Assembly: GCF_005885635.1 (NCBI RefSeq)
Contig: NZ_VATY01000001.1
Coordinates: forward strand, 1,550,001-1,614,000
Reading direction: 5' to 3'
Source of the DNA: Maribacter algarum (ex Zhang et al. 2020)
GTDB taxonomy: Bacteria; Bacteroidota; Bacteroidia; Flavobacteriales; Flavobacteriaceae
Length of the DNA stretch: 64,000 bases
The translations under genes and the position numbers were made by a program. This document shows, one piece after another, positions 9,849 to 52,112 of the stretch. A model generated the notes under the pieces. The model searched no databases, was not told the origin of the DNA, and saw nothing but the letters and a program-made list of their open reading frames with translations. Numbering within the stretch: position 1 is the stretch's first letter; every line of letters starts with the position of its first letter.

Positions 9849-10349
9849 CTATAAAACGAGTTCAAAACAATGAAATGGATGCTCGCTTTGTTTTGGAAGA
9901 AAAATGTCACCAAGACGTCGATATCCCCTAGCTTCATAAAACTTTTGATTCCGTTTGTTTTGACTAAACGTATCGAGGCGAACGGAAACAAAACCATTTT
10001 CTTTTGCGTAGTTTTCAGCAAAATCCATAAGTTTTTGAGCGTAACCCTTTCCCTGTAGATTAGGTTCAATGGATAAGCGATGAATATAAACACTATTTCC
10101 ATTCGGTGTACGCCATTCGATAGGTACATATTCATCATCCATAAGCGTAGATATAACTATGGTTCCAATGATTTTCTCATTCACTTCTAATACATATAAT
10201 TCATCTCTTTCGATGTCTTTTTCAAACGCTGCGGCGGACGGATAATGTTCATTCCATTGGTAAATTCCATTGGAAATCATATGTGCCGCACAAGCTTTAC
10301 AAATAGTAAGAATGTCGGGTATTTCCGATATCTTTGCACGTCGAATCAT
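9849..10349 (-). CDS. GNAT family N-acetyltransferase
   Basis: A 166-residue acetyltransferase. The acetyl-CoA binding motif A is seen as the Q-G-K-G-Y-A pattern in LSIEPNLQGKGYAQKLMDFA, followed by motif B (NQKFYEARGYRRLGD). The N-terminal IRRAKISEIPDILTIC strand-helix is standard for the family. The substrate (amino acid, amine or peptide terminus) cannot be inferred. It is divergent from the universal stress protein gene and lies directly upstream of the MATE exporter. Confidence 0.82.
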   Translation of the reverse strand: MIRRAKISEIPDILTICKACAAHMISNGIYQWNEHYPSAAAFEKDIERDELYVLEVNEKIIGTIVISTLMDDEYVPIEWRTPNGNSVYIHRLSIEPNLQGKGYAQKLMDFAENYAKENGFVSVRLDTFSQNKRNQKFYEARGYRRLGDIFLPKQSEHPFHCFELVL

Positions 10350-10402
10350 TCGTGAAGTTCAATTTAATTGTAAATTTAGAATATTAATTAACATTCTTTT
10401 CC

Positions 10403-11197
10403 ATGAAACACATCCTCGTTCCTATCGGCACTTCCAATACAGGCGAAACGCTACAATATGCAGTTGATTTTGCTTCTGAGTTTTCAGCACAGGTTTTTGT
10501 TATGGATGTATTTTCCGTTTCGGCAAAGGCCGGCACATTGGCAAATATTTCAGAAAAGGTCGAGGAAAGTAGTAAAGAACGTTTACGGGAGATAATAGGA
10601 AAGGTTGATGCAAAACAGGTAACTATTAAAATAGCCACATACAATGGTGATATTGTTGATGGATTAAAAGAAATAGACAAGGAATTAGGAATTGACTTGA
10701 TAATTATCTCACCTAGAAGTAATGCTATTGAGGAAGAATTGTATTTAGGTCATACTACAGGAGGAATAATAAAGAAGACGGACATTCCTGCACTTATTGT
10801 ACCCAAAGGAACTGTTTTTACTCCTTTCAAAACAGCTTTGACCGCTTTTAAATCAGGTGTTTTGAAGAAGAAACGAATATTGGAGCCACTACTGTCTATT
10901 CAGAAAAAATTTGGCACTTTGGTAAGTTTGCTTTTAGTAAAAACCCCAGGATACGATTCGGATGATTTGAAAGTACACCCGGCGCTAATGGATATCAGCG
11001 AACAACTTACGATAACCGAAAATGCAACTACCTATCAGGGTGTTTTAGAACACTTTCAATCTCACCAACCTGATTTACTTTGTGTTTTTAGAAGAAAAAG
11101 AGGTTTCTTCAAAAAACTTTGGGAAAAGAATACCATTTTAAAATCAGAGTTTTTCGTGAAAATACCTGTTCTAATGCTTAGGGTTAAGAAGTATTAA
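10403..11197 (+). CDS. universal stress protein (UspA family), tandem-domain type
   Basis: A 264-residue protein. The N-terminal half (1-135) is a clear Usp domain: MKHILVPIG start, DLIIISPR, and a phosphate-loop-like GHTTGGIIKKTDIPALIVP near 117-135. The second half is a diverged Usp-like domain ending IPVLMLRV. The first domain keeps most of the nucleotide-binding G-2x-G-9x-G spacing with changes. It is probably a cytoplasmic stress-response protein. It ends 70 bases before the tRNA-Ala gene. Confidence 0.8.
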   Translation: MKHILVPIGTSNTGETLQYAVDFASEFSAQVFVMDVFSVSAKAGTLANISEKVEESSKERLREIIGKVDAKQVTIKIATYNGDIVDGLKEIDKELGIDLIIISPRSNAIEEELYLGHTTGGIIKKTDIPALIVPKGTVFTPFKTALTAFKSGVLKKKRILEPLLSIQKKFGTLVSLLLVKTPGYDSDDLKVHPALMDISEQLTITENATTYQGVLEHFQSHQPDLLCVFRRKRGFFKKLWEKNTILKSEFFVKIPVLMLRVKKY

Positions 11198-11268: not shown

Positions 11269-11347
<79 letters not shown>

Positions 11348-20347: not shown

Positions 20348-20817
20348 AAGTTTTTTTGTACGAAAGCTAAATTACCGCAAGACTTTTTGAACATAAAATT
20401 ACGGTTAGTTTCAAAAAGTCATGGAAATTATGAAATTAACCTTCTTTTGACCACCTTACAACTCTTGGCAAAATAAGCATTATACAAGGCATTCCTTTTT
20501 TAAAAATACTTCATTAGTCTTTTATTAAATTTTTTGTTCCTTACCCAAATCTTACCATACTTACCATGCGCCGGAACCTGTTTCGATTTTATAGTGTCCA
20601 GGTAGGTAAGCGTAAATTAAAATCGAAATAGGGCGCATCTACTTACCTTTCTTGTATTAGTTAGAATCTACTTCAGATAATCCTAAGGATTCAAGTATAT
20701 CATTATATTTTATTCAAAATAACACCTCTTCCATAGTTAAAATCAAAGTACTTCCCGATCCTATATTGCCTAACAGTTAATTTGAAGTCGGTTGGCAATT
20801 CAAGATGTGTCATTGTC
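20348..20817. other. intergenic control region of the mobilisation block
   Basis: The first 190 bases are AT-rich with no gene seen. From 20544 the region holds hairpin element H1 (in reverse), then a unique stretch, and from 20797 the candidate oriT that runs into the mobC start. Confidence 0.5.
20544..20637 (-). repeat. hairpin element H, copy 1 (reverse orientation)
   Basis: Read on the minus strand: TGCGCC, CTAT, an AT-rich stem, the loop core TACGCTTACCTAC, the complementary stem, CAGG, then GGCGCA and the tail GGTAAGATTTGGG. The other copies are at 22520-22613 and 36033-36127. The stem bases differ between copies but stay complementary. Copies 1 and 2 face each other and enclose the oriT/mob block. 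Confidence 0.65.
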
Positions 20818-20860
20818 ATGACAATCTTGCTTTTGCTCCCGAAGGTCGCAAAAGAAAAAA
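20797..20860 (+). other. candidate oriT of island 1
   Basis: This segment contains the 14-bp palindrome ATTGTCATGACAAT (20812-20825) and then a hairpin CTTTTGC/GCAAAAG around TCCCGAAGGTC. A copy lies at 35946-36006 in island 2, with 37 identical bases at its start. The hairpin there is one pair shorter on both arms, so structure rather than reading frame is kept. The position just before mobC and the relaxase is where an origin of transfer is expected. Confidence 0.6.
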
Positions 20861-21165
20861 GGAAAAAGGTGAAGCGAGAATTCATACAGTTCCGGTGCAG
20901 CATCTATGAGAAAAAGATGCTCAGGTTAAAGGCCAAAAAAGCAGGACTTTCCCTATCCGAATATTGCAGGAGTGCGGCTTTTGAAAACAACATCGCAGAA
21001 AGGCTCACTTCGGAACAATTGGAACATTATGCGATGCTGGTCAAGTACAAGAACAACTTTACAAGAATCAGCAATATGTTCAAGAAGCGTAATCCCAAAT
21101 TAGCAAAGGAAGTGGAGCAGCTCGCCAATGAAATACGGATTCATCTCTACAATTTCAAAAAATGA
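20818..21165 (+). CDS. MobC-like mobilisation accessory protein
   Basis: A 115-residue basic protein from ATG 20818. An ATG at 20782 is possible, but both lie inside the oriT-like structure, so a non-ATG start further in is also conceivable. The core KREFIQFRCSIYEKKMLRLKAKKAGLS (in pieces) leads to LSEYCRSAAF, which fits the ribbon-helix-helix domain of Bacteroidota MobC proteins that bind oriT. A helical C-terminus follows. It overlaps the relaxase start by 4 bases. Confidence 0.78.
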   Translation: MTILLLLPKVAKEKRKKVKREFIQFRCSIYEKKMLRLKAKKAGLSLSEYCRSAAFENNIAERLTSEQLEHYAMLVKYKNNFTRISNMFKKRNPKLAKEVEQLANEIRIHLYNFKK

Positions 21166-22031
21166 TAGGAAAGGGAAAATCGATATCGCATACAGGAGCA
21201 TCCATGGGCTATGGATGGAACCAGGAGAAGAATGCAGAGGTCGTCTACGAGCAACATCTGGCAGGGGATAACCCAAGGGAGATCACAGAGGAGTTCAGGA
21301 TCATCCAAGAGCAGAACATAAGAACGAAAAACAACACCCTGAGTTTTGTACTAAGCCCGACCATTGAGGATGGAAAAGACCTCACTGGAGAACAACTCCT
21401 AGAACTTACCCACAGATTCATTGCCGAAATGAAGCTATCGGAACATCAAGGAATCGGTTTCGTACATCGGGACAAACAGCACACCCATGTGCATGTCTAC
21501 GTCAACAGGATAAGTTTCGATGGGATGGCCTATAAGGACAACTTCATTGGTAAGAGAAGCCAATATGCTGCGGAAAAAGTTGCCAAGGAAATGGGACTTA
21601 CCACTGCTAGGGAAGTACAACAGGAAAAACTAAATGAACTAAAAAGGATACGCAAAGAAATCAAACAGACCCATGAAAAAGTCATGACGGAAAAGAGGCC
21701 CAAGGACTTTGACCAGTATATGAAATACATGCAGCAAAACGAGATAAAGGTTATACCAAGTATCAATAGGCAAAACCAGTTACAGGGTTTTCGATTTAAT
21801 TATAAGGGTCATAATCTAAAAGGAAGCGAAGTACACCGTTCGATGTCGGGAAGCAGATTGGCCATTCAAATAGCCAACAATTCGGAAAAGGGGATACTGC
21901 CCAAAAAAGGTAATACTATCAGCCTATCGGGTAAAACCATAGGACTCAGTATGAACCTAGCTACCAGTATTGCCAAACAAGTTTTGAAAAGAGTTATTAA
22001 AAGAACATTGGATCGAGGAATAGGAATATAA
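21162..22031 (+). CDS. relaxase/mobilisation nuclease (MobA/VirD2-like)
   Basis: A 289-residue relaxase. The three-histidine metal site is seen as H107THVHVYVN115, the motif III of MOBP-type relaxases. A candidate catalytic tyrosine is Tyr17 in the N-terminal segment SMGYGWN, and FVLSPTIEDG lies between. It would nick oriT and lead the DNA strand into a host conjugation channel. It is short, with no primase or helicase domain, as in mobilisable islands of Bacteroidota. ATG 21162 overlaps mobC. Confidence 0.85.
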   Translation: MIGKGKSISHTGASMGYGWNQEKNAEVVYEQHLAGDNPREITEEFRIIQEQNIRTKNNTLSFVLSPTIEDGKDLTGEQLLELTHRFIAEMKLSEHQGIGFVHRDKQHTHVHVYVNRISFDGMAYKDNFIGKRSQYAAEKVAKEMGLTTAREVQQEKLNELKRIRKEIKQTHEKVMTEKRPKDFDQYMKYMQQNEIKVIPSINRQNQLQGFRFNYKGHNLKGSEVHRSMSGSRLAIQIANNSEKGILPKKGNTISLSGKTIGLSMNLATSIAKQVLKRVIKRTLDRGIGI

Positions 22032-22048
22032 ACGTAAAGAATAGAACC

Positions 22049-22516
22049 ATGAAAAAGATGGAAGAGATGATGGAACTTTTCACCGATGAAATCGAGGGGT
22101 TTAGTAAATCAATCAATAAGTTGGAGAGTTTGTCCAAGAATTTCGTTGACCTGAAAATAAAGACGGATACTTCAAGTATCGAATACCTTTTAAAAGACTT
22201 CTTAAAAGAACAGCGAAAAGTAATAACGATTTACAAAGAGAAAACAACCGAAATAAAACAGGGATTAAGATTGGCTCGGATAACCCCGAATTGGATGGCA
22301 ACCTTGTTCTGTATTACAGTAACAATCCAAGTTCTATCATTGAGCTATTTTGCCTATCACTTTATTCATTCTGAGAATAGGAACAAAGCGGCTTACATAG
22401 AAGGTCAAAAAGAAAGCAATGAAAGTGCAAGACGATATTTTGAAGACCATCCCATTATTTATGAAGATTATAAAAAATGGACCAGAAAGAAAGAGGGTAT
22501 TCAAAATCAAAAGTAG
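22049..22516 (+). CDS. mobilisation-linked membrane protein, function unknown
   Basis: A 155-residue protein with a long coiled-coil-like N-terminal part (about 1-75, rich in E/K/L heptads), a single transmembrane helix at about 88-110 (WMATLFCITVTIQVLSLSYF), and a charged C-terminus. Small proteins of this design commonly follow relaxase genes in Bacteroidota mobilisable elements. It may anchor the relaxosome at the membrane, which is inference only. Confidence 0.6.
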   Translation: MKKMEEMMELFTDEIEGFSKSINKLESLSKNFVDLKIKTDTSSIEYLLKDFLKEQRKVITIYKEKTTEIKQGLRLARITPNWMATLFCITVTIQVLSLSYFAYHFIHSENRNKAAYIEGQKESNESARRYFEDHPIIYEDYKKWTRKKEGIQNQK

Positions 22517-22519
22517 GTA

Positions 22520-22613
22520 TGCGCCCTATCCTGTTTTTGCTATACGCTTATCTACCGGAACACTACAAAAACAGGACAGGGACCATGCGCAAAGTTTTGG
22601 GTAAGATTTGGGG
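22520..22613 (+). repeat. hairpin element H, copy 2
   Basis: TGCGC...GCGCA encloses CTATCCTGTTTTTG and its complement CAAAAACAGGACAG, with the loop core TACGCTTATCTACCGGAAC. The tail GGTAAGATTTGGGG ends 17 bases before the integrase stop. The stem sequence differs from copies 1 and 3, yet each pairs within itself, and the same A/C mismatch and asymmetric bulge are kept. Confidence 0.7.
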
Positions 22614-22630
22614 TAAGGAAAAAACCAATA

Positions 22631-23848
22631 CTATATTTCCATTAATTTTTTGTTATAATCATCTAATATTTCATTTGGTAAGGACTTCAAATATATTTGA
22701 GTAGTGGACAAACGATTGTGTCCAAGCATCGCTGAAATTGCTTGTAATGGAACATCTTGCAGCATGGCCTGGGTCGCAAAGCTATGGCGTGATACATACG
22801 AAGTTAACCGTTGTTCAATATTGCATTTTTTTGCAATCTCTTTTAATCCTTTATTATATCTCTTTCGAGCCCATAATACATCCTTATATTGAAGTTCAAA
22901 GGTGCCCCTTTTAACTATTGGAAATATGAAATCTGATTTTCTCTTGTTCTTGAGGTAAAACGAGAGGATCTCCATTAGCTGTGATGTTATGTTTATATCA
23001 TAAGGTTTATATGTTTTTTTCCTTTGAAACTTAATGCGGTTATCAATGATATTTTCAACTTTTAAAAAGGCCAAGTCCATAAATGAAACACCATAAAGCA
23101 TATAAGACGCTAAGAAATAGTTTCTATAATGAAATAGGCTATCTGTTTCTTCCAGTTTCAAAATCATTATAGATTTGATGCTTTTGATATCAAGAGCTCT
23201 TTTCTCGGTGGGAGTTGTTTTAATTCTATAATGGGTAAACGGATAAGAATCTCTAGAAATAACATCAGATTTAATGGCCTTATTTAAAATAGCCTTTATT
23301 GTTCTCATGTATGCCGAAAGACCGTTTACAGAATTACCTCTAGAAAAATGCCACCTTTCAAATGTTTTAAGAAAGTCATAATTAACTTCATTGAATTTGA
23401 TATCCTTCCCACCAGTAAACTTTTCCAATACTTTGATTACAGCATAGTATGTGTTGGCATTTCCAAAACGTTCTGCCTTCTTTAACTCCTTAACAATACC
23501 CTTGCTATATTCGAAAAATGATTCAAAAGACACAGTTTTTACGATTTTGCTTTTGAGTTGGAGAATAGACAAAAAGTTGAGCTCATCCTTTTCGTGAAGG
23601 TCATTGATTATGTCCACCGCTCTTGTCTTTTCTTTCAAAAGCTGATTATTTAATTTGCTAACCGATGCGGTGCCTTTAAACGCTCTTTTTACTTTCTCAT
23701 TTTTATTGTCCCAAAATTCTTTTTGAATAGATTGGCCTAAACTTATTGACGTTGTTTTACGAAAATGAGTCAATCTTAAAATAACGGGATAGGAAGAATC
23801 CTTTTTCTGCCTTCGCGTATCCAAAGAAAGTTTTATATTAGTGTTCAT
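22631..23848 (-). CDS. tyrosine recombinase (integrase of island 1)
   Basis: A 405-residue site-specific recombinase. It has an N-terminal arm-binding part (LSLDTRRQKKDSSYPVILRL), a SAM-like core-binding domain, and a catalytic domain with Arg354 (VSRHSFAT), His377 (LGHNR) and nucleophile Tyr386 (TTQIYLKSL). Where most relatives have the box I arginine (TRGMSF-type), this protein reads LYGVSFMDLAFL. It lies at the right end of island 1, reading inward, next to attR and the TTTGCACGCAA repeats. Confidence 0.9.
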   Translation of the reverse strand: MNTNIKLSLDTRRQKKDSSYPVILRLTHFRKTTSISLGQSIQKEFWDNKNEKVKRAFKGTASVSKLNNQLLKEKTRAVDIINDLHEKDELNFLSILQLKSKIVKTVSFESFFEYSKGIVKELKKAERFGNANTYYAVIKVLEKFTGGKDIKFNEVNYDFLKTFERWHFSRGNSVNGLSAYMRTIKAILNKAIKSDVISRDSYPFTHYRIKTTPTEKRALDIKSIKSIMILKLEETDSLFHYRNYFLASYMLYGVSFMDLAFLKVENIIDNRIKFQRKKTYKPYDINITSQLMEILSFYLKNKRKSDFIFPIVKRGTFELQYKDVLWARKRYNKGLKEIAKKCNIEQRLTSYVSRHSFATQAMLQDVPLQAISAMLGHNRLSTTQIYLKSLPNEILDDYNKKLMEI

Positions 23849-36006: not shown

Positions 36007-36032
36007 TTAGAACTTAAAATGACAATAGTAGA

Positions 36033-36127
36033 TGCGCCCTATTTCGATTTCACTTAACGCTTATCTATCGGAACGCTATGAAATCGAAACAGGAACCATG
36101 CGCAGTTAAGTTAGGGTAAGATTTGGG
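36033..36127 (+). repeat. hairpin element H, copy 3
   Basis: TGCGC/GCGCA ends, stem CTATTTCGATTTCA with TGAAATCGAAACAG, loop core ACGCTTATCTATCGGAAC, tail GGTAAGATTTGGG ending 10 bases before the integrase stop. It has the same position relative to the integrase as copy 2 in island 1. Confidence 0.7.
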
Positions 36128-36136
36128 ATGTTTCTA

Positions 36137-37399
36137 CTAAGCAACAATACGTTCGTTAGCTTCATCTAAAGTAGAGTTATCAAAACGTTTCAAGTAAATT
36201 TCAGTAGTTTTTAAGGAACTATGCCCCAAACCTTCACTTATTACTGCGGTCGGGATTCCCATAAATTTGGCGATTGTCGCCCAAGAATGACGAATAGCAT
36301 ATGTTGTAAAGTGCTGTTTAATTCCTGCGTCTAGCGCGATAATTTTTAGTCTTTCGTTTACCCTTCTTCTTATGGTTTTATACTTCTCATATTTAGCTGT
36401 ACTGCCATCGTAATTTGCAGGGAATAGAAAATCATCCTCTGATTTATCTATTAAATAATGGGCTAAAATCTCCTTTAGCTCAGAAGTGAGTTTTACTGAT
36501 AATGGGTCACCTGTTTTACTTCTTCCATAGAATATTCTATCCTCACGTACATTTGATTTTTTAAGCTTAACCAAGTCTATCAAATTCATTGCTCTGCAAT
36601 TAAACATTATCAGAGCATAGTTTTTCGTATGCCACAGCGCAGAGTTCTTTCCATATTTTAATTTGCGAATGTTTAGGAAGTCTTCTTTAGAAATCGCTCT
36701 CTTCTTTGTTTGATTTGAAGATGGAATCTTGTACCGATGAAAAGGGTTCTTGACTACTTCAATTCTATCTTCATTTATAGCTGCGTTATATATTGCCCTG
36801 ATAGCTCTTAGGACTGAACTTATGCTATTTGGTTTTAGGCCTTTTGATTCTTTTTCTATTTGAAAATCTTTGAGCATACTTACATTTAATTGGTCCAATC
36901 TTAAATCTTGATTGTTATTGAATTTTATAAAAGCTTTTATTCCATTTAAATACCATTCCGCTGAGCTTGGTTTGTTTGTTTTTAGTTTTCTGTCAACAAT
37001 GACTTGCCCCCAAACTTTTAGAGTTAATCCGTTTGATAGTTTGCCTTTTAGAGATGGGCTAATCTGTTCCTCCCATTTATCTTTGATTTCCGATACTAGA
37101 GTATCTACGGCCATATATTGGATAGCATCTCCGAGTTCATTTATCAAGCTTCGCGCAACATGAAGTTTGTCATACAAAATTTGGTTGACTTTTGAGCAGT
37201 CAATACTTTTATTTACAAGAACAGAGCGTTTCAGACAGAATGAATTTACATCCCATCCATTTTTTGAAGTCTCATATGGTAATCGAATAATTCTTGGCTT
37301 AGTATGGAATAATCGTAATGCAATCGGATACAATTCAGAAATTGTATTTTTCGATGATTTTCGAGTATCTAATATGAGTTTAACTTTAGCCATTTTCAC
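36137..37399 (-). CDS. tyrosine recombinase (integrase of island 2)
   Basis: A 420-residue recombinase with an arm-type N-terminal domain (KLILDTRKSSKNTISELYPI), a SAM-like core-binding domain, and the full catalytic set: a box I arginine in NCRAMNLIDL, Arg370 (AIRHSWAT), His393 (LGHSS) and Tyr402 (TTEIYLKRF). It is clearly diverged from the island 1 enzyme, yet uses the same tRNA-Ala site. It reads inward from the right end, beside its own TGCACA-type repeats. Confidence 0.92.
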   Translation of the reverse strand: MKMAKVKLILDTRKSSKNTISELYPIALRLFHTKPRIIRLPYETSKNGWDVNSFCLKRSVLVNKSIDCSKVNQILYDKLHVARSLINELGDAIQYMAVDTLVSEIKDKWEEQISPSLKGKLSNGLTLKVWGQVIVDRKLKTNKPSSAEWYLNGIKAFIKFNNNQDLRLDQLNVSMLKDFQIEKESKGLKPNSISSVLRAIRAIYNAAINEDRIEVVKNPFHRYKIPSSNQTKKRAISKEDFLNIRKLKYGKNSALWHTKNYALIMFNCRAMNLIDLVKLKKSNVREDRIFYGRSKTGDPLSVKLTSELKEILAHYLIDKSEDDFLFPANYDGSTAKYEKYKTIRRRVNERLKIIALDAGIKQHFTTYAIRHSWATIAKFMGIPTAVISEGLGHSSLKTTEIYLKRFDNSTLDEANERIVA

Positions 37400-48500: not shown

Positions 48501-49109
48501 ATGGCTTTTGAATTACCAAAATTACCCTATGCCTATGATGCGTTGGAACCACATATTGATGCAAGAACGATGGAGATTCACCATACCAAACATCACAATG
48601 GATATACTACAAAATTAAATGCAGCGATTGAAGGAACTGATTTGGCAGGAAAATCAATAGAGGACATTTTATCGAATTTAGATATGTCGAACGGAGCTGT
48701 TAGAAATAACGGAGGGGGATTTTTCAACCACTCTTTATTTTGGAGTGTTATGTCACCTGATGGTGGAGGTTTACCTTCTGGAGAATTAGCTAGTGCTATT
48801 AATGACGCTTACGGTTCGTTCGAGGAATTTAAAAGTAAATTTAGTACTGCTGCTGGAACTAGATTTGGTTCGGGTTGGGCATGGCTCTGCGTGCACCCAG
48901 GAGGTAAAGTAGAAGTTTGCTCTTCGCCAAACCAGGATAATCCACTGATGCCAAGTGTTGGTTGTGGTGGCCAACCTATTTTAGGCTTAGATGTTTGGGA
49001 ACATGCTTACTACTTGAACTATCAGAATAGAAGACCTGATTATGTAAGTGCTTTTTTCAATGTTATCAATTGGGATAAAGTGGCCGAATTGTATAGCGCA
49101 CACAAATAA
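48501..49109 (+). CDS. sodB: superoxide dismutase (Fe/Mn family)
   Basis: A 202-residue cytoplasmic enzyme. The metal ligands are His27 (EIHHTKHH), a second His in FFNHSLFW, and Asp and His in [12 protein letters not shown]. It has the usual N-terminal [15 protein letters not shown] and GSGWAWL. Whether iron or manganese is used cannot be decided from these motifs. It is followed by a very strong terminator and transcribed alone. The gene symbol is by family and metal choice is not proven. Confidence 0.9.
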
Positions 49110-49139
49110 GAGTCTTTTAAGTACTCTCCAAATAAGAAA

Positions 49140-49177
49140 AATCCCTCCCCCGTAATTACGGGGGAGGGATTTTTTTA
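49140..49177 (+). terminator. strong intrinsic terminator of sodB
   Basis: AATCCCTCCCCCGTAA and its exact complement make a stem of up to 16 bp with almost no loop, followed by seven T. Confidence 0.9.
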
Positions 49178-49187
49178 GGTTCCAATT

Positions 49188-49268
49188 AAAAATAGAAAAG
49201 GGCGGAGAAGTCTCCACCCTTTTCGTCCCAAATCTTACCATAAACTTAACCTACTTATGCTATGGCAG
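49188..49268 (-). ncRNA. candidate small RNA, unit A
   Basis: The -7 box TAATTTAG (49271-49278) lies 5 bases before CCATAGCATAAGTAGGTTAA, followed by GTTTATGGTAAGATTTGGG. The terminator stem GGGTGGAG/CTCCGCCC (one T-G pair valid only in a minus-strand RNA) ends in TTTTCTATTTTT. The RNA would be about 78 nt. In this copy the 5' CCATA can pair with an internal TATGG. Confidence 0.7.
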
Positions 49269-49397
49269 TACTAAATTACTGGTATTGCGTTAAATAAAAA
49301 AGAAATTTTGGTATTTTTTAAGAGCTTTATTTATCAATAAAATCGTAGGAAATTACTTAAAAATGAGGTTAACCTTGTTAAACACTGGGGGTTTCAA

Positions 49398-49473
49398 ATA
49401 AAAAAGGCGGAACAATGTTCCACCTTTTTTCCCCAAATCTTACCATGAACTTAACCTACTTATGCTATGGTTC
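49398..49473 (-). ncRNA. candidate small RNA, unit B
   Basis: The -7 box TATTTTTG (49476-49483), a perfect TAnnTTTG, lies 5 bases before the same CCATAGCATAAGTAGGTTAA body. GTTCATGGTAAGATTTGGGG follows, and the terminator GGTGGAAC/GTTCCGCC (again a T-G pair on the minus strand) ends in TTTTTTATTT. About 75 nt. Confidence 0.75.
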
Positions 49474-49743
49474 TCCAAAAATATAGTGATTATTTGACCT
49501 TTTAAAAGGTTTTAGATGAACTTCCAAGAAGTTGGGTTGAAATGCATTTTATCGATGAGAGTCCTACAAACCGATGTAAATGACGGGTAACTTTTCTCCA
49601 AGTAGTACCATAGACTTGAGATATTGAAATAGGAGCGCGCATGGAAATCGAACTATTTTTCCAACCGTGTTTTTTGCTCAACATTCTTTTGGATTCTAAA
49701 GTTGTTGACTCAAGTATAGATCTAACTTTCGAAGGAATATTTA

Positions 49744-49819
49744 AAAATAAAAAGGCGGAGCAATGCTCCGCCTTTTCCCCAAATCTTACCATGAACTTAA
49801 CCTACTTATGCTATGGTTC
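49744..49819 (-). ncRNA. candidate small RNA, unit C
   Basis: The -7 box TACTTTTG (49822-49829), a perfect TAnnTTTG, is 5 bases before the conserved body. The terminator is GGCGGAGCA/TGCTCCGCC, fully paired with a C-G where units A and B have T-G, then TTTTTATTTTT. About 75 nt. Confidence 0.75.
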
Positions 49820-50035
49820 TTCAAAAGTAAAGCGAGTTCGTGATTCTTGAAAACTTCTTTGTTGAAGTTCGCATAATTCGGATGAAGTGTAATTTCACGA
49901 AGTGTTTTAGGAAGAGCCTTAGACTTTTGAGCCCAATAAATTGGACATTTGAAATAAATTGAGTGTTATTTAGCTTTAACGACTTTTGAATAGCTGCTTT
50001 GAAAAGAAAAGCCTTTAACAGGGAGTTTGATTAAA

Positions 50036-50111
50036 ATAAAAAAGGTGGAGAAGTCTCCACCTTTTTTGCCCCAAATCTTACCATGAACTTAACCTACTTA
50101 TGCTATGGCAA
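50036..50111 (-). ncRNA. candidate small RNA, unit D
   Basis: The -7 box TATTTTAG (50114-50121) is 5 bases before the conserved body. The terminator GGTGGAG/CTCCACC is fully paired with a T-A where unit C has C-G, then TTTTTTATTTT. This unit is nearest to the purF-like gene, whose 3' hairpins separate it from that transcript. Confidence 0.72.
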
Positions 50112-50166
50112 ATCTAAAATAGACGAGACACCTTCCATGGAGGCTAAAAACACGCTGAATAGCGTG

Positions 50167-50210
50167 AATTATCGATGAACTACAAGAATTTGTGCATTTC
50201 ATCGATAATT
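50167..50210. terminator. inverted repeat after the purF-like gene
   Basis: AATTATCGATGAA and TTCATCGATAATT (13 bp, exact) flank a 17-base loop right after the stop codon. A second small hairpin CACGCT/AGCGTG follows at about 50151-50166. No long T run is present on the minus strand. Confidence 0.5.
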
Positions 50211-50213
50211 TTA

Positions 50214-52112
50214 TTAGTAGGCCCGTTCATTTTTACCTTCGTAGAAATTAATAAATGCTCTATTGACTACACGATTTCCCCCTGCTGTCGGGTAGTTTCC
50301 GGTGAAATACCAATCTCCTAAATTCTTCGGACAGGCTTGGTGGAGATTTTCAATAGATTGATAGATGATTTCAACTTCAGCTTTAATATCCTTTGGACTT
50401 AATAATTCGCCACTTTTTTTCGAAATTTCATCGGCTGTGAAAGGAGCATAGAACTCCTTTACGTAATTAATTACCTCGGCATCTTTTGTGTTGACTTGAG
50501 TTAAACATTTTTTATAAATATCTTCCACGATATCTAATGTTCCTCTGTCTTTGTGTAGGTCTAGTGCAGCTCTAAAGGCAATAAAATCTTCGAGCTTGGC
50601 CATATCAATACCATAACAATCGGGGTAGCGAATTTGGGGAGCAGAAGAGACAACGATTATTTTCTTAGGTGATAGTCGATCAAGAATGCGAAGAATACTT
50701 TTCTTAAGTGTAGTACCTCTAACGATGCTATCATCAATAATCACCAAGTTGTCCCCTTTGTCAACTGAACCATATGAAATATCGTAAACGTGGGCAACCA
50801 AATCGTCACGACTATCATCTTGTGTGATAAAGGTTCGCAGCTTCGCATCTTTAATGGCTACTTTCTCTATTCTAGGTCGGACTTCTAAAATCTCATGAAG
50901 CTCCTCACTAGTAATTTTTGACCCGATAGAAAGAATTTGTTCCTCTTTTTTCTTATTCAAATAGTTCTGCGCTTCCTTGACCATTCCGAAGAAAGAAGTC
51001 TCGGCGGTATTCGGAATATAGGAGAAAACAGTTTTCTTGATATTATGGTCAATAGCATCCAAAATTTTAGGAAAAATGAGCTTTCCAAGTTCTTTTCGTT
51101 CTTGATAGATTTCTTTATCGCTTCCACGGGAAAAATAAATACGCTCGAAGGAGCAAGCTTTTCTTTCCGTAGGCTCAAGAACTTGTTTTAAAGAAGTGCT
51201 ACCATCTTTTTTGATGATAAATGCATGACCTGGATCCAGTTCTTTTACATCATCATAAGAAACATTAAAAACAGTTTGAATTGCTGGTCTTTCTGAAGCA
51301 ACTACTGCCACCTCATGATCTTGATAATAATAGGCAGGCCGGATTCCCGCAGGATCTCTTAATACAAAGGCATCTCCGTGCCCTAATAAACCCGCCATAG
51401 CATAACCGCCATCAAAGTTTTTAGCTGCCCTTCTAAGTATTTTAGCAACTTTGAGACGTTCTGCAATTAAGGGTGAAGCTTCTTGTTTGTTGTACCCTTC
51501 TTTTTTAATCTGCTTATATAACTTGGCAACGGCGTCATCTAAGAAATGACCAATTTTTTCCATCACGGTAACGGTGTCTGCCATTTCCTTTGGGTGTTGC
51601 CCCAATTGTACCAAGTTGTCAAAAAGCTCATGTACATTGGTCATATTAAAATTACCCGCCATGATAAGATTTCTATGCATCCAGTTATTTTGACGTAAGA
51701 ATGGATGCACACTTTCAATACTATTCTTTCCGAAAGTGCCATAGCGAACATGACCTAAAAGTAACTCCCCTATATACGGAATATTCTTTTTTTGCAAAGC
51801 CACATCACTAGCATATTCGGGGTTTTGCTCCATTTCAGTATTGATTCGGTCATTGATTTGAGCGAAAATATCTTGAATAGGTTGTTGCTGACTTGAGCGT
51901 ACGCGACTCATGTATCGCTCTCCAGCATTCATATCTAATTTGATACTTGCAAAACCGGCACCATCTTGACCCCGATTATGCTGCTTCTCCATCATCAAAT
52001 ACATTTTGTTAACTCCGTAGAAAGCAGTACCATACTTTTCTTTGTAGTACTCTAGGGGTTTTAACAATCGTATTACCGATATACCACATTCATGTTTAAT
52101 AGCGTCGCTCAT
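50214..52112 (-). CDS. amidophosphoribosyltransferase family protein (PurF-like, long form)
   Basis: A 632-residue protein with an N-terminal class II glutamine amidotransferase domain. The candidate nucleophile is Cys9 in HECGISVIR, with NRGQDGAG and HVRYGTFG following. The C-terminal phosphoribosyltransferase domain has the PRPP loop VIIDDSIVRGTT. It is longer than ordinary PurF (about 470-500), with insertions in the middle (coiled-coil-like MVKEAQNYLNKKKEEQ). Cys9 is not at the mature N-terminus unless an 8-residue propeptide is removed. It is probably a second, diverged PurF for the first purine step. The PfkB kinase lies upstream on the same strand. Confidence 0.85.
   Translation of the reverse strand: MSDAIKHECGISVIRLLKPLEYYKEKYGTAFYGVNKMYLMMEKQHNRGQDGAGFASIKLDMNAGERYMSRVRSSQQQPIQDIFAQINDRINTEMEQNPEYASDVALQKKNIPYIGELLLGHVRYGTFGKNSIESVHPFLRQNNWMHRNLIMAGNFNMTNVHELFDNLVQLGQHPKEMADTVTVMEKIGHFLDDAVAKLYKQIKKEGYNKQEASPLIAERLKVAKILRRAAKNFDGGYAMAGLLGHGDAFVLRDPAGIRPAYYYQDHEVAVVASERPAIQTVFNVSYDDVKELDPGHAFIIKKDGSTSLKQVLEPTERKACSFERIYFSRGSDKEIYQERKELGKLIFPKILDAIDHNIKKTVFSYIPNTAETSFFGMVKEAQNYLNKKKEEQILSIGSKITSEELHEILEVRPRIEKVAIKDAKLRTFITQDDSRDDLVAHVYDISYGSVDKGDNLVIIDDSIVRGTTLKKSILRILDRLSPKKIIVVSSAPQIRYPDCYGIDMAKLEDFIAFRAALDLHKDRGTLDIVEDIYKKCLTQVNTKDAEVINYVKEFYAPFTADEISKKSGELLSPKDIKAEVEIIYQSIENLHQACPKNLGDWYFTGNYPTAGGNRVVNRAFINFYEGKNERAY

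What the first reader, a model, noticed from the sequence alone, without database searches (positions are those of the whole stretch)
49188..50121. Four tandem promoter-RNA-terminator units: a likely undescribed multicopy small-RNA locus
In the 1-kb gap between sodB and the purF-like gene, one design occurs four times on the minus strand. It comprises a TAnnTT(T/A)G box, exactly 5 bases, a body of about 40 nt beginning CCATAGCATAAGTAGGTTAA and ending GTAAGATTTGGG, then an intrinsic terminator with a T run. The -7 box spacing is identical in all four. At one terminator position the pairs are T-G, T-G, C-G and T-A, so the stem covaries, and the T-G pairs hold only for minus-strand RNA. Stop codons occur in every frame. 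The DNA between units is not conserved, so selection appears to act on the unit. I infer four sibling RNAs of about 75 nt, possibly differently regulated.
Basis: partly seen in the sequence, partly recalled or inferred. Interest (0 to 1): 0.87.

Follow-up and report, generated by a model that had tools for sequence, protein, structure and literature searches.

The report
Tandem flavobacterial small-RNA genes with decoy
Four near-identical small-RNA genes sit side by side next to an antioxidant-enzyme gene; the same array is kept across a large bacterial family, probably blocks the start codons of some surface-protein messages, and seems to have a second RNA made to soak it up.

Summary
Four minus-strand units (starts 50108, 49816, 49470, 49265) each have a TAnnTTWG box, 5 bases, an almost invariant 5' domain and an intrinsic terminator. 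No Rfam family reaches its cut-off. The array is conserved in Flavobacteriaceae, mostly between purF and sodB, 1-6 copies (235 units read in 114 named stretches). The sodB-proximal copy is a class of its own with its own promoter.

Two further findings bear on mechanism. (1) A separate gene ('B', outside the window; 18 of 295 relatives) has its own promoter and terminator and encodes an RNA antisense to the 5' domain: a probable decoy. (2) Among 1,666 ORF starts in about 2.06 Mb of the own genome, four reach a two-part pairing score of -24 or better (400 nulls: mean 0.26, maximum 2). In these, the AUG pairs with sRNA nt 7-9 and an upstream stretch pairs within nt 27-40. The four products look exported.

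Best reading: a multicopy, start-codon-blocking sRNA family for surface proteins. It may work like Bacteroides FopS but fails FopS membership tests. Transcription, repression and regulation are untested.

The parts
50038..50108 (-). sRNA unit 1 (first in transcription order), 71 nt, GTTCATGG class
50114..50121 (-). -7 box TATTTTAG, 5 bases before unit 1
   Evidence: spacing statistics
49749..49816 (-). sRNA unit 2, 68 nt
49822..49829 (-). -7 box TACTTTTG, 5 bases before unit 2
49400..49470 (-). sRNA unit 3, 71 nt
49476..49483 (-). -7 box TATTTTTG, 5 bases before unit 3
49196..49265 (-). sRNA unit 4 (sodB-proximal class: GTTTATGG, GGGACG), 70 nt
49271..49278 (-). -7 box TAATTTAG, 5 bases before unit 4
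49279..49287 (-). CAATACCAG promoter stretch special to the last copy (33 of 62 last copies)
48501..49109 (+). sodB, Fe/Mn superoxide dismutase; downstream flank of the array, opposite strand
50214..52112 (-). purF-like gene (weak GATase matches in Pfam); upstream flank, same strand as the array
20545..20556 (+). 12-nt complement of sRNA nt 27-38 (CCAAATCTTACC) at one end of a mob element
22600..22611 (-). same complement at the other end of that element, just after a tyrosine-recombinase gene
36115..36126 (-). same complement just after a second tyrosine-recombinase gene

Best explanation
The four units are a tandem array of paralogous, independently transcribed small RNAs of about 68-71 nt, members of a conserved Flavobacteriaceae family that is not in Rfam. 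Each has a 5' domain (predicted hairpin, nt 1-28), a linker GGUA(A)GAUUUGGGG and an intrinsic terminator. I propose that it acts in trans by base pairing: nt 7-17 (CAUAAGUAGGU) pair across the start codon (AUG with nt 7-9), and part of nt 27-40 pairs with a CCC(A/T)AAT-like stretch just upstream, blocking translation of a set of exported proteins. A second RNA gene, 'B', carries complements of both segments and probably titrates the sRNA. Several promoter classes let nearly the same RNA be made under different conditions. Shown by computation: the family, its conservation, promoter and terminator geometry, copy classes, the B gene, an excess of two-part start-codon sites. Inferred: transcription, repression, titration, differential regulation.
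For: Geometry and terminators in 235 units; synteny in 114 of 118 stretches; family hits in 62 same-family genomes against 11 listed without a match; copy classes; no shared frame. B gene: 18 genomes in 12 genera, duplex -46 to -50 kcal/mol, z -11 to -13 for six genes. Targets: 4 starts <= -24 among 1,666 against a null mean of 0.26 and maximum of 2 in 400 nulls; the four starts with CTACTT before ATG all also have E1 <= -9, a property of 188 of 1,666 starts. One of the four came from stretches fetched after the motif was noted and one from a hold-out with a prior written prediction.
Against: No transcript, protein or target data. The hold-out alone is modest: 15 of 300 nulls reach its top score and 33 of 300 have some start <= -24. 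At rank 10 and 20 the two-part scores are not unusual (17 and 38 of 120 nulls). Exported proteins are not enriched in the top 20 or 40 hits. One target may start 11 codons further down. The start motif TTAACCTACTT is not more frequent than its reversed control in the genus once arrays are set aside. Orthologues of the targets were not checked. The 5' hairpin barely varies, so covariation cannot support it. B was not found in most relatives.
Confidence: 0.6

Rival explanations
1. A real sRNA family that works mainly by binding a protein: the invariant hairpin is the binding site and multiple copies set the dose for titration of an unknown RNA-binding regulator.
For: Nearly every base of nt 7-30 is invariant, loop and stem alike, which is more than a pairing seed usually needs; copy number varies 1-6.
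Against: The B gene and the mobile-element sites are long complements of the same domain, which points to pairing; no RRM_1 protein in the own genome.
Confidence: 0.14
2. The RNA's chief partners are mobile elements: it silences, or is soaked up by, recombinase transcripts that carry its complement; or the sRNA gene was the integration target from which the elements took that sequence.
For: All 10 exact CCAAATCTTACC sites of the own genome outside the array and B lie beside the element hairpin. The site follows the host's sRNA length: 18 of 18 long in the window's genus, 4 of 4 short in three genera with the short sRNA.
Against: One genome (G031) has a site that does not match its sRNA; the G018 and G031 sites lack the full hairpin. 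The exact site was found in only 11 of 98 relatives, whereas the array is far wider.
Confidence: 0.12
3. The units are DNA elements (recombination sites, regulator-binding repeats or a transposable repeat) and not RNA genes.
For: They are repeated, and part of the sequence recurs at mobile-element ends.
Against: Fixed box spacing, T-tailed stems on one strand with G-T pairs, fixed orientation and locus.
Confidence: 0.03
4. The units encode a small protein from the conserved ATG in GTTYATGG.
For: The ATG is conserved and N-termini MVDLGQ or MVRFG recur.
Against: One base is present or absent after GGTA, which shifts the frame between clades; ORF lengths from this ATG are spread from under 10 to over 50 codons (read to 200 nt only).
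Confidence: 0.02

Closest known systems
FopS, family of paralogous sRNAs of Bacteroides (Rfam RF04319; PMC11697453)
   Same: Short multicopy sRNAs of Bacteroidota, each with a sigma-A-type promoter, a conserved 5' seed and a terminator; proposed to block start-codon regions of surface-protein mRNAs. The unit shares UUCAUGGUA(UU)AGAUUU with the FopS consensus (38 of 5,000 shuffles as good).
   Different: Scores 20.2 bits against a cut-off of 56. Here a tandem array at one locus instead of dispersed genes; a further conserved 5' segment (CAUAAGUAGGUUAA) that carries the best predicted start-codon pairing; a predicted 5' hairpin; no RRM_1 protein found in the genome; predicted targets are not SusC.
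Rfp18 and other Rfp RNAs of Flavobacterium psychrophilum (PMC9723704)
   Same: Conserved flavobacterial sRNA linked to metalloproteases and an adhesin (passages); two of our predicted targets are a type IX adhesin-like protein and a putative metallopeptidase.
   Different: Rfp18 is described with a third stem-loop that pairs, whereas this RNA has two. Its sequence and place were not available, so identity with one of the Rfp RNAs is open.
Multicopy sRNA families with near-identical siblings (Qrr, LhrC, OmrA/B; recalled) and sRNA decoys (recalled)
   Same: Siblings under different promoters; an antisense RNA that could titrate them.
   Different: No sequence relation was tested. Here the probable decoy is a free-standing gene with its own conserved promoter and terminator, and it covers two pairing segments.

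Membership tests
FopS (RF04319) | Covariance-model score over the curated cut-off (56 bits) | tested here: not met
   20.2 bits for unit 1; 0 of 1 own genome with a match over cut-off, while the control Bacteroides ihuae has one (150 of 898 candidates scored)
FopS (RF04319) | Several paralogues per genome, each with a sigma-A-type promoter and terminator | tested here: met
   4 copies in the window; 1-6 per array in relatives; box at fixed spacing in 193 of 235, terminator in 227 of 235
FopS (RF04319) | R1/R1' seed near the 5' end | tested here: inconclusive
   15 letters shared with one 2-nt gap; 38 of 5,000 dinucleotide shuffles score as well; could be convergence on start-codon regions
[quoted passage not shown]
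   A 5' hairpin is predicted in the six RNAs folded, but invariance leaves no covariation to test it
FopS (RF04319) | RRM-1 protein partner (RbpB) | tested here: not met
   PF00076: 0 matches in the own genome at E <= 0.001; the control Bacteroides ihuae rings. A protein without a Pfam match would be missed
FopS (RF04319) | Represses SusC-type transporters at the start codon | tested here: inconclusive
   No SusC gene among the four best sites; the direct look at SusC starts was poor because minus-strand loci were not re-oriented
Rfp18 of F. psychrophilum | Same sequence or same locus | not testable with these tools
Bona fide small RNA | Promoter, terminator and absence of a conserved frame | tested here: met
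Bona fide small RNA | Transcript detected | not testable with these tools
   no expression data held
Transposable repeat family | Copies scattered at unrelated places | tested here: not met
   114 of 118 named stretches at purF and/or sodB; 4 with neither, and isolated extra copies exist

The most novel reading that the evidence does not exclude
A two-RNA switch for the cell surface of Flavobacteriaceae: an array of sibling sRNAs under different promoters blocks start codons of exported adhesins and degradative enzymes through two separate pairing segments; a dedicated antisense RNA with its own promoter soaks them up through both segments; and mobile elements carry the same complement beside their recombinase genes, in the form that fits the host's version of the RNA.
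Probability: 0.33. Interest if true: 0.88.

Novelty: new variant of a known kind. Interest (0 to 1): 0.76.

Why it matters
Post-transcriptional control in Bacteroidota is known mainly from Bacteroides, and Flavobacteriaceae have few studied sRNAs (my general knowledge, plus the two papers seen). This offers a family-wide, strongly conserved, multicopy sRNA with named candidate targets and a candidate antagonist, so that the control of surface and secreted proteins becomes directly testable in culturable species. The antisense gene, the start-codon sites and the mobile-element copies give three separate handles on the pairing region.

Tried and rejected
FopS membership: not met at the cut-off; kept only as 'may work like'. 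Start-codon pairing through UUCAUGG (the FopS register): weak excess only (CC-ATG-AA 13 against 7.7 expected, ACC-ATG-AA 7 against 3.4; 729 starts). SusC targeting: no support, with a poor test. Unconstrained duplex ranking: barely beyond shuffles (the shuffle counts at -14 there were capped at 30 by my script and mean nothing). Exported proteins among the top two-part hits: 9 of 20 against a null mean of 7.7, 16 of 40 against 15.2, so only the extreme tail stands out. Single 7- and 8-mers of the sRNA at starts: a few small excesses, biased by the fixed ATG. Low-bit Rfam matches such as STnc40 and sraA rest mostly on the terminator. The element hairpins near recombinases match no Rfam family at cut-off. 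The terminator count picked stems for pairing, so its 94% paired fraction (70% when re-dealt) is partly circular, and 68 of 354 distinct units were dropped for want of an anchored stem. In one search and later I set aside G058 from the B count because its match has no matching body. Literature: a full-text search for the 12-nt core in three spellings found 2 papers, on watermelon and Candida by their titles (listing only); searches listed no description of this RNA that I recognised. I claim no absence from print beyond those searches, and supplements were closed.

Full report
OBSERVATION. The four units described are present at the stated place. On the minus strand each has a TAnnTTWG box, exactly five bases, a body CCATAGCATAAGTAGGTTAAGTT(C/T)ATGGTAAGATTTGGG, and an intrinsic terminator. 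Folding gives a 5' hairpin (nt 1-28), a linker and a terminator stem; z-scores of the four are -3.2 to -3.9. In the whole window the only Rfam 15 match at cut-off is a tRNA at 11270-11343.

A FAMILY. The 20-nt start pattern with up to three mismatches is found in 52 of 98 relatives. All 14 genomes of the genus have 3-6 matches; the reversed control pattern gives 0-5 per genome over the 98, so single weak matches can be chance. A covariance model from 57 units hits 65 of 296 genomes of the order at E <= 0.01. Of these 62 are of the same family; 11 family genomes without a match are listed, and 211 more genomes without a match are not listed. Three marginal hits (E 0.003-0.01) lie outside the family and are probably chance. 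The 80 titles shown name Flavobacteriaceae genera such as Maribacter, Zobellia, Flagellimonas, Winogradskyella, Aquimarina and Flavobacterium, and a few are labelled only Flavobacteriia, Bacteroidetes or Bacteroidota. Both purF and sodB flank the array in 82 of 118 stretches; in 21 only purF was seen nearby, in 11 only sodB, in 4 neither. Orientation is that of purF in 103 of 103 and opposite to sodB in 93 of 93. Arrays with both flanks hold 1, 2, 3, 4, 5 or 6 units in 32, 17, 17, 10, 5 and 1 cases. Start-to-start spacing has a median of 206 nt, and 109 of 124 lie within 170-260.

ANATOMY. In 235 units of 114 stretches the -7 box (>=5 of 6 fixed letters of TAnnTTTG, the sigma-A consensus given in PMC9723704, passages) lies at spacing 5 in 193; the next best spacings have 29 and 25. 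A terminator-like hairpin is found in 227. Nt 7-30 were part of the search pattern there, so their invariance is partly built in; in the 57 units, found with a looser seed (nt 1-20, up to 2 substitutions), nt 21-30 are also invariant except for C or T at nt 24. Terminator stems change by compensation (third pair from the T run: TA 141, CG 62, TG 57, GC 16, AT 10 of 286, with the caveat that stems were picked for pairing). There is no conserved frame: GGTAAGATTT in one clade is GGTAGATTT in another, and ORFs from the conserved ATG have scattered lengths (235 units, read to 200 nt).

COPY CLASSES. In 62 arrays of two or more units, the sodB-proximal copy carries TTTATGG in 55 (2 of 62 first and 3 of 62 middle copies) and the promoter stretch CAATACCAG in 33 (0 first, 1 middle). 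Many middle copies in the stretches printed have a TTCATCTAAAA-like stretch and a box followed by GGAGAA or GGAGGA. The siblings thus keep different promoters and one pairing domain, which supports 'differently regulated' at sequence level only.

A COMPLEMENTARY RNA GENE. A fifth match in the own genome reads in the opposite sense. From G000:C14:289586 it has TTGACAACT, CATCTTTG 28 nt on, then CCCAAATCTTACC AAA CTTAACCTACTTA GTGCTA and an intrinsic terminator. The body is complementary to nearly all of sRNA nt 4-39 with a small central bulge. For six genes of the genus the duplex is -46 to -50 kcal/mol, z -11 to -13 against shuffled bodies. A strict body pattern finds 6 of 98 relatives, all in the window's genus. 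A pattern on its promoter and first bases finds 19 of 295; I dropped G058, whose match has no matching body. That leaves 18 genomes in 12 genera: 7 of 14 in the window's genus and 11 others, with three tandem copies in G429. Outside the genus the match to the sRNA is less complete, but the first bases CCAAATCT(T/G)A(C/T)C persist, and the T run is weak in a few. I call it 'B' and read it as a decoy; that is inference.

START-CODON SITES. I called ORF starts (ATG, at least 80 codons, longest frame) in held stretches of the own genome. A first look (864 kb, 729 starts) gave only a weak generic excess, but some of the best duplexes shared a two-part site: a CCC(A/T)AAT-like stretch, then ACCTACTT-ATG. 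I noted the motif, fetched more, and wrote a prediction before a hold-out. Over 1,666 starts four score <= -24; 400 nulls with shuffled segments that keep CAU have a mean of 0.26 and a maximum of 2. They are the four starts that have CTACTT before ATG, and all four also have E1 <= -9, a property of 188 of 1,666 starts. The other 59 permutations of that 6-mer give 4 such joint cases in 27. Split by time: in the 607 starts fetched after the motif, 4 of 300 nulls reach the top score; in the 332 hold-out starts, 15 of 300 do, and 33 of 300 have some start <= -24. The written prediction came true, but the hold-out alone is modest evidence. Two of the four sites are from the first set, so the pooled null is somewhat flattered. 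Products: a protein with a CHU_C type IX secretion domain; a polysaccharide lyase with what I read as a lipoprotein signal; a putative lipoprotein with metallopeptidase matches just below Pfam's cut-offs; and a protein with a signal-like N-terminus and no Pfam match. The lyase may start 11 codons further down, which would put its site in the leader.

MOBILE ELEMENTS. The own genome has 15 exact CCAAATCTTACC sites: 4 in the array, 1 in B, and 10 beside a hairpin of roughly 75 nt. Three of the ten are in the window. Several lie just after, or overlap, the stop codon of a tyrosine recombinase (three Pfam-tested: two in the window and L069). Two bound a 2-kb stretch with NikA-like, relaxase and DUF6730 genes. 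With the longer pattern (23 places in 11 of 98 relatives), 18 of 18 places in the window's genus have the long form, as their arrays do; in three genera whose sRNA is one A shorter, 4 of 4 places have the short form; one place, in G031, fits neither its own sRNA. The G018 and G031 places lack the full hairpin. Pairing, or an origin of the element ends in the sRNA gene, could each explain this.

COMPARISON. The nearest kind is FopS (abstract, passages and section 8 of PMC11697453 seen). Its Rfam consensus shares UUCAUGGUA(UU)AGAUUU with the unit (38 of 5,000 shuffles as good). But the score is far below cut-off, no RRM_1 protein is found in the own genome, the genes are in tandem and the best predicted pairing uses another segment. 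I do not file it as FopS; it may work like FopS. Identity with one of the F. psychrophilum Rfp RNAs could not be tested (passages).

VERDICT. A real, conserved sRNA-gene family with a good case for being regulatory. The proposed mechanism, start-codon blocking of surface-protein mRNAs with an antisense decoy, rests on computation alone.

Noticed in passing
window 20540-22640: A 2-kb stretch with NikA-like, relaxase and DUF6730 genes, bounded by inverted hairpins that carry a complement of the sRNA linker; near copies in G009 C76, G010 C23 and G002 C1 (L264-L266).
   Followed up: partly
window 36022-36130 and 36137-37399: The same kind of hairpin with the complement lies just after a second tyrosine-recombinase gene.
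   Followed up: partly
L351 (G000:C14:289586 onward; also L005): Gene 'B': a promoter- and terminator-bearing RNA antisense to the sRNA domain, with TTAGCATACAAAAA and TTGACAACT kept upstream at fixed spacing in several genera.
   Followed up: yes
L250 about 1520-1865 and 10140-10490 (G018:C13): Two isolated sRNA copies 8.6 kb apart, away from that genome's main array, share an upstream stretch that differs from the array promoters.
   Followed up: no
L347 (G429:C9:58972-59426): Three tandem B genes about 200 nt apart, a spacing much like that of the sRNA arrays.
   Followed up: no
window 49137-49174: A perfect 19-bp inverted repeat between sodB and the array, probably a terminator usable from both sides.
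   Followed up: no
window 50167-50210: An 18-nt imperfect inverted repeat (89% complementary) between the end of the purF-like gene and the promoter of unit 1.
   Followed up: no
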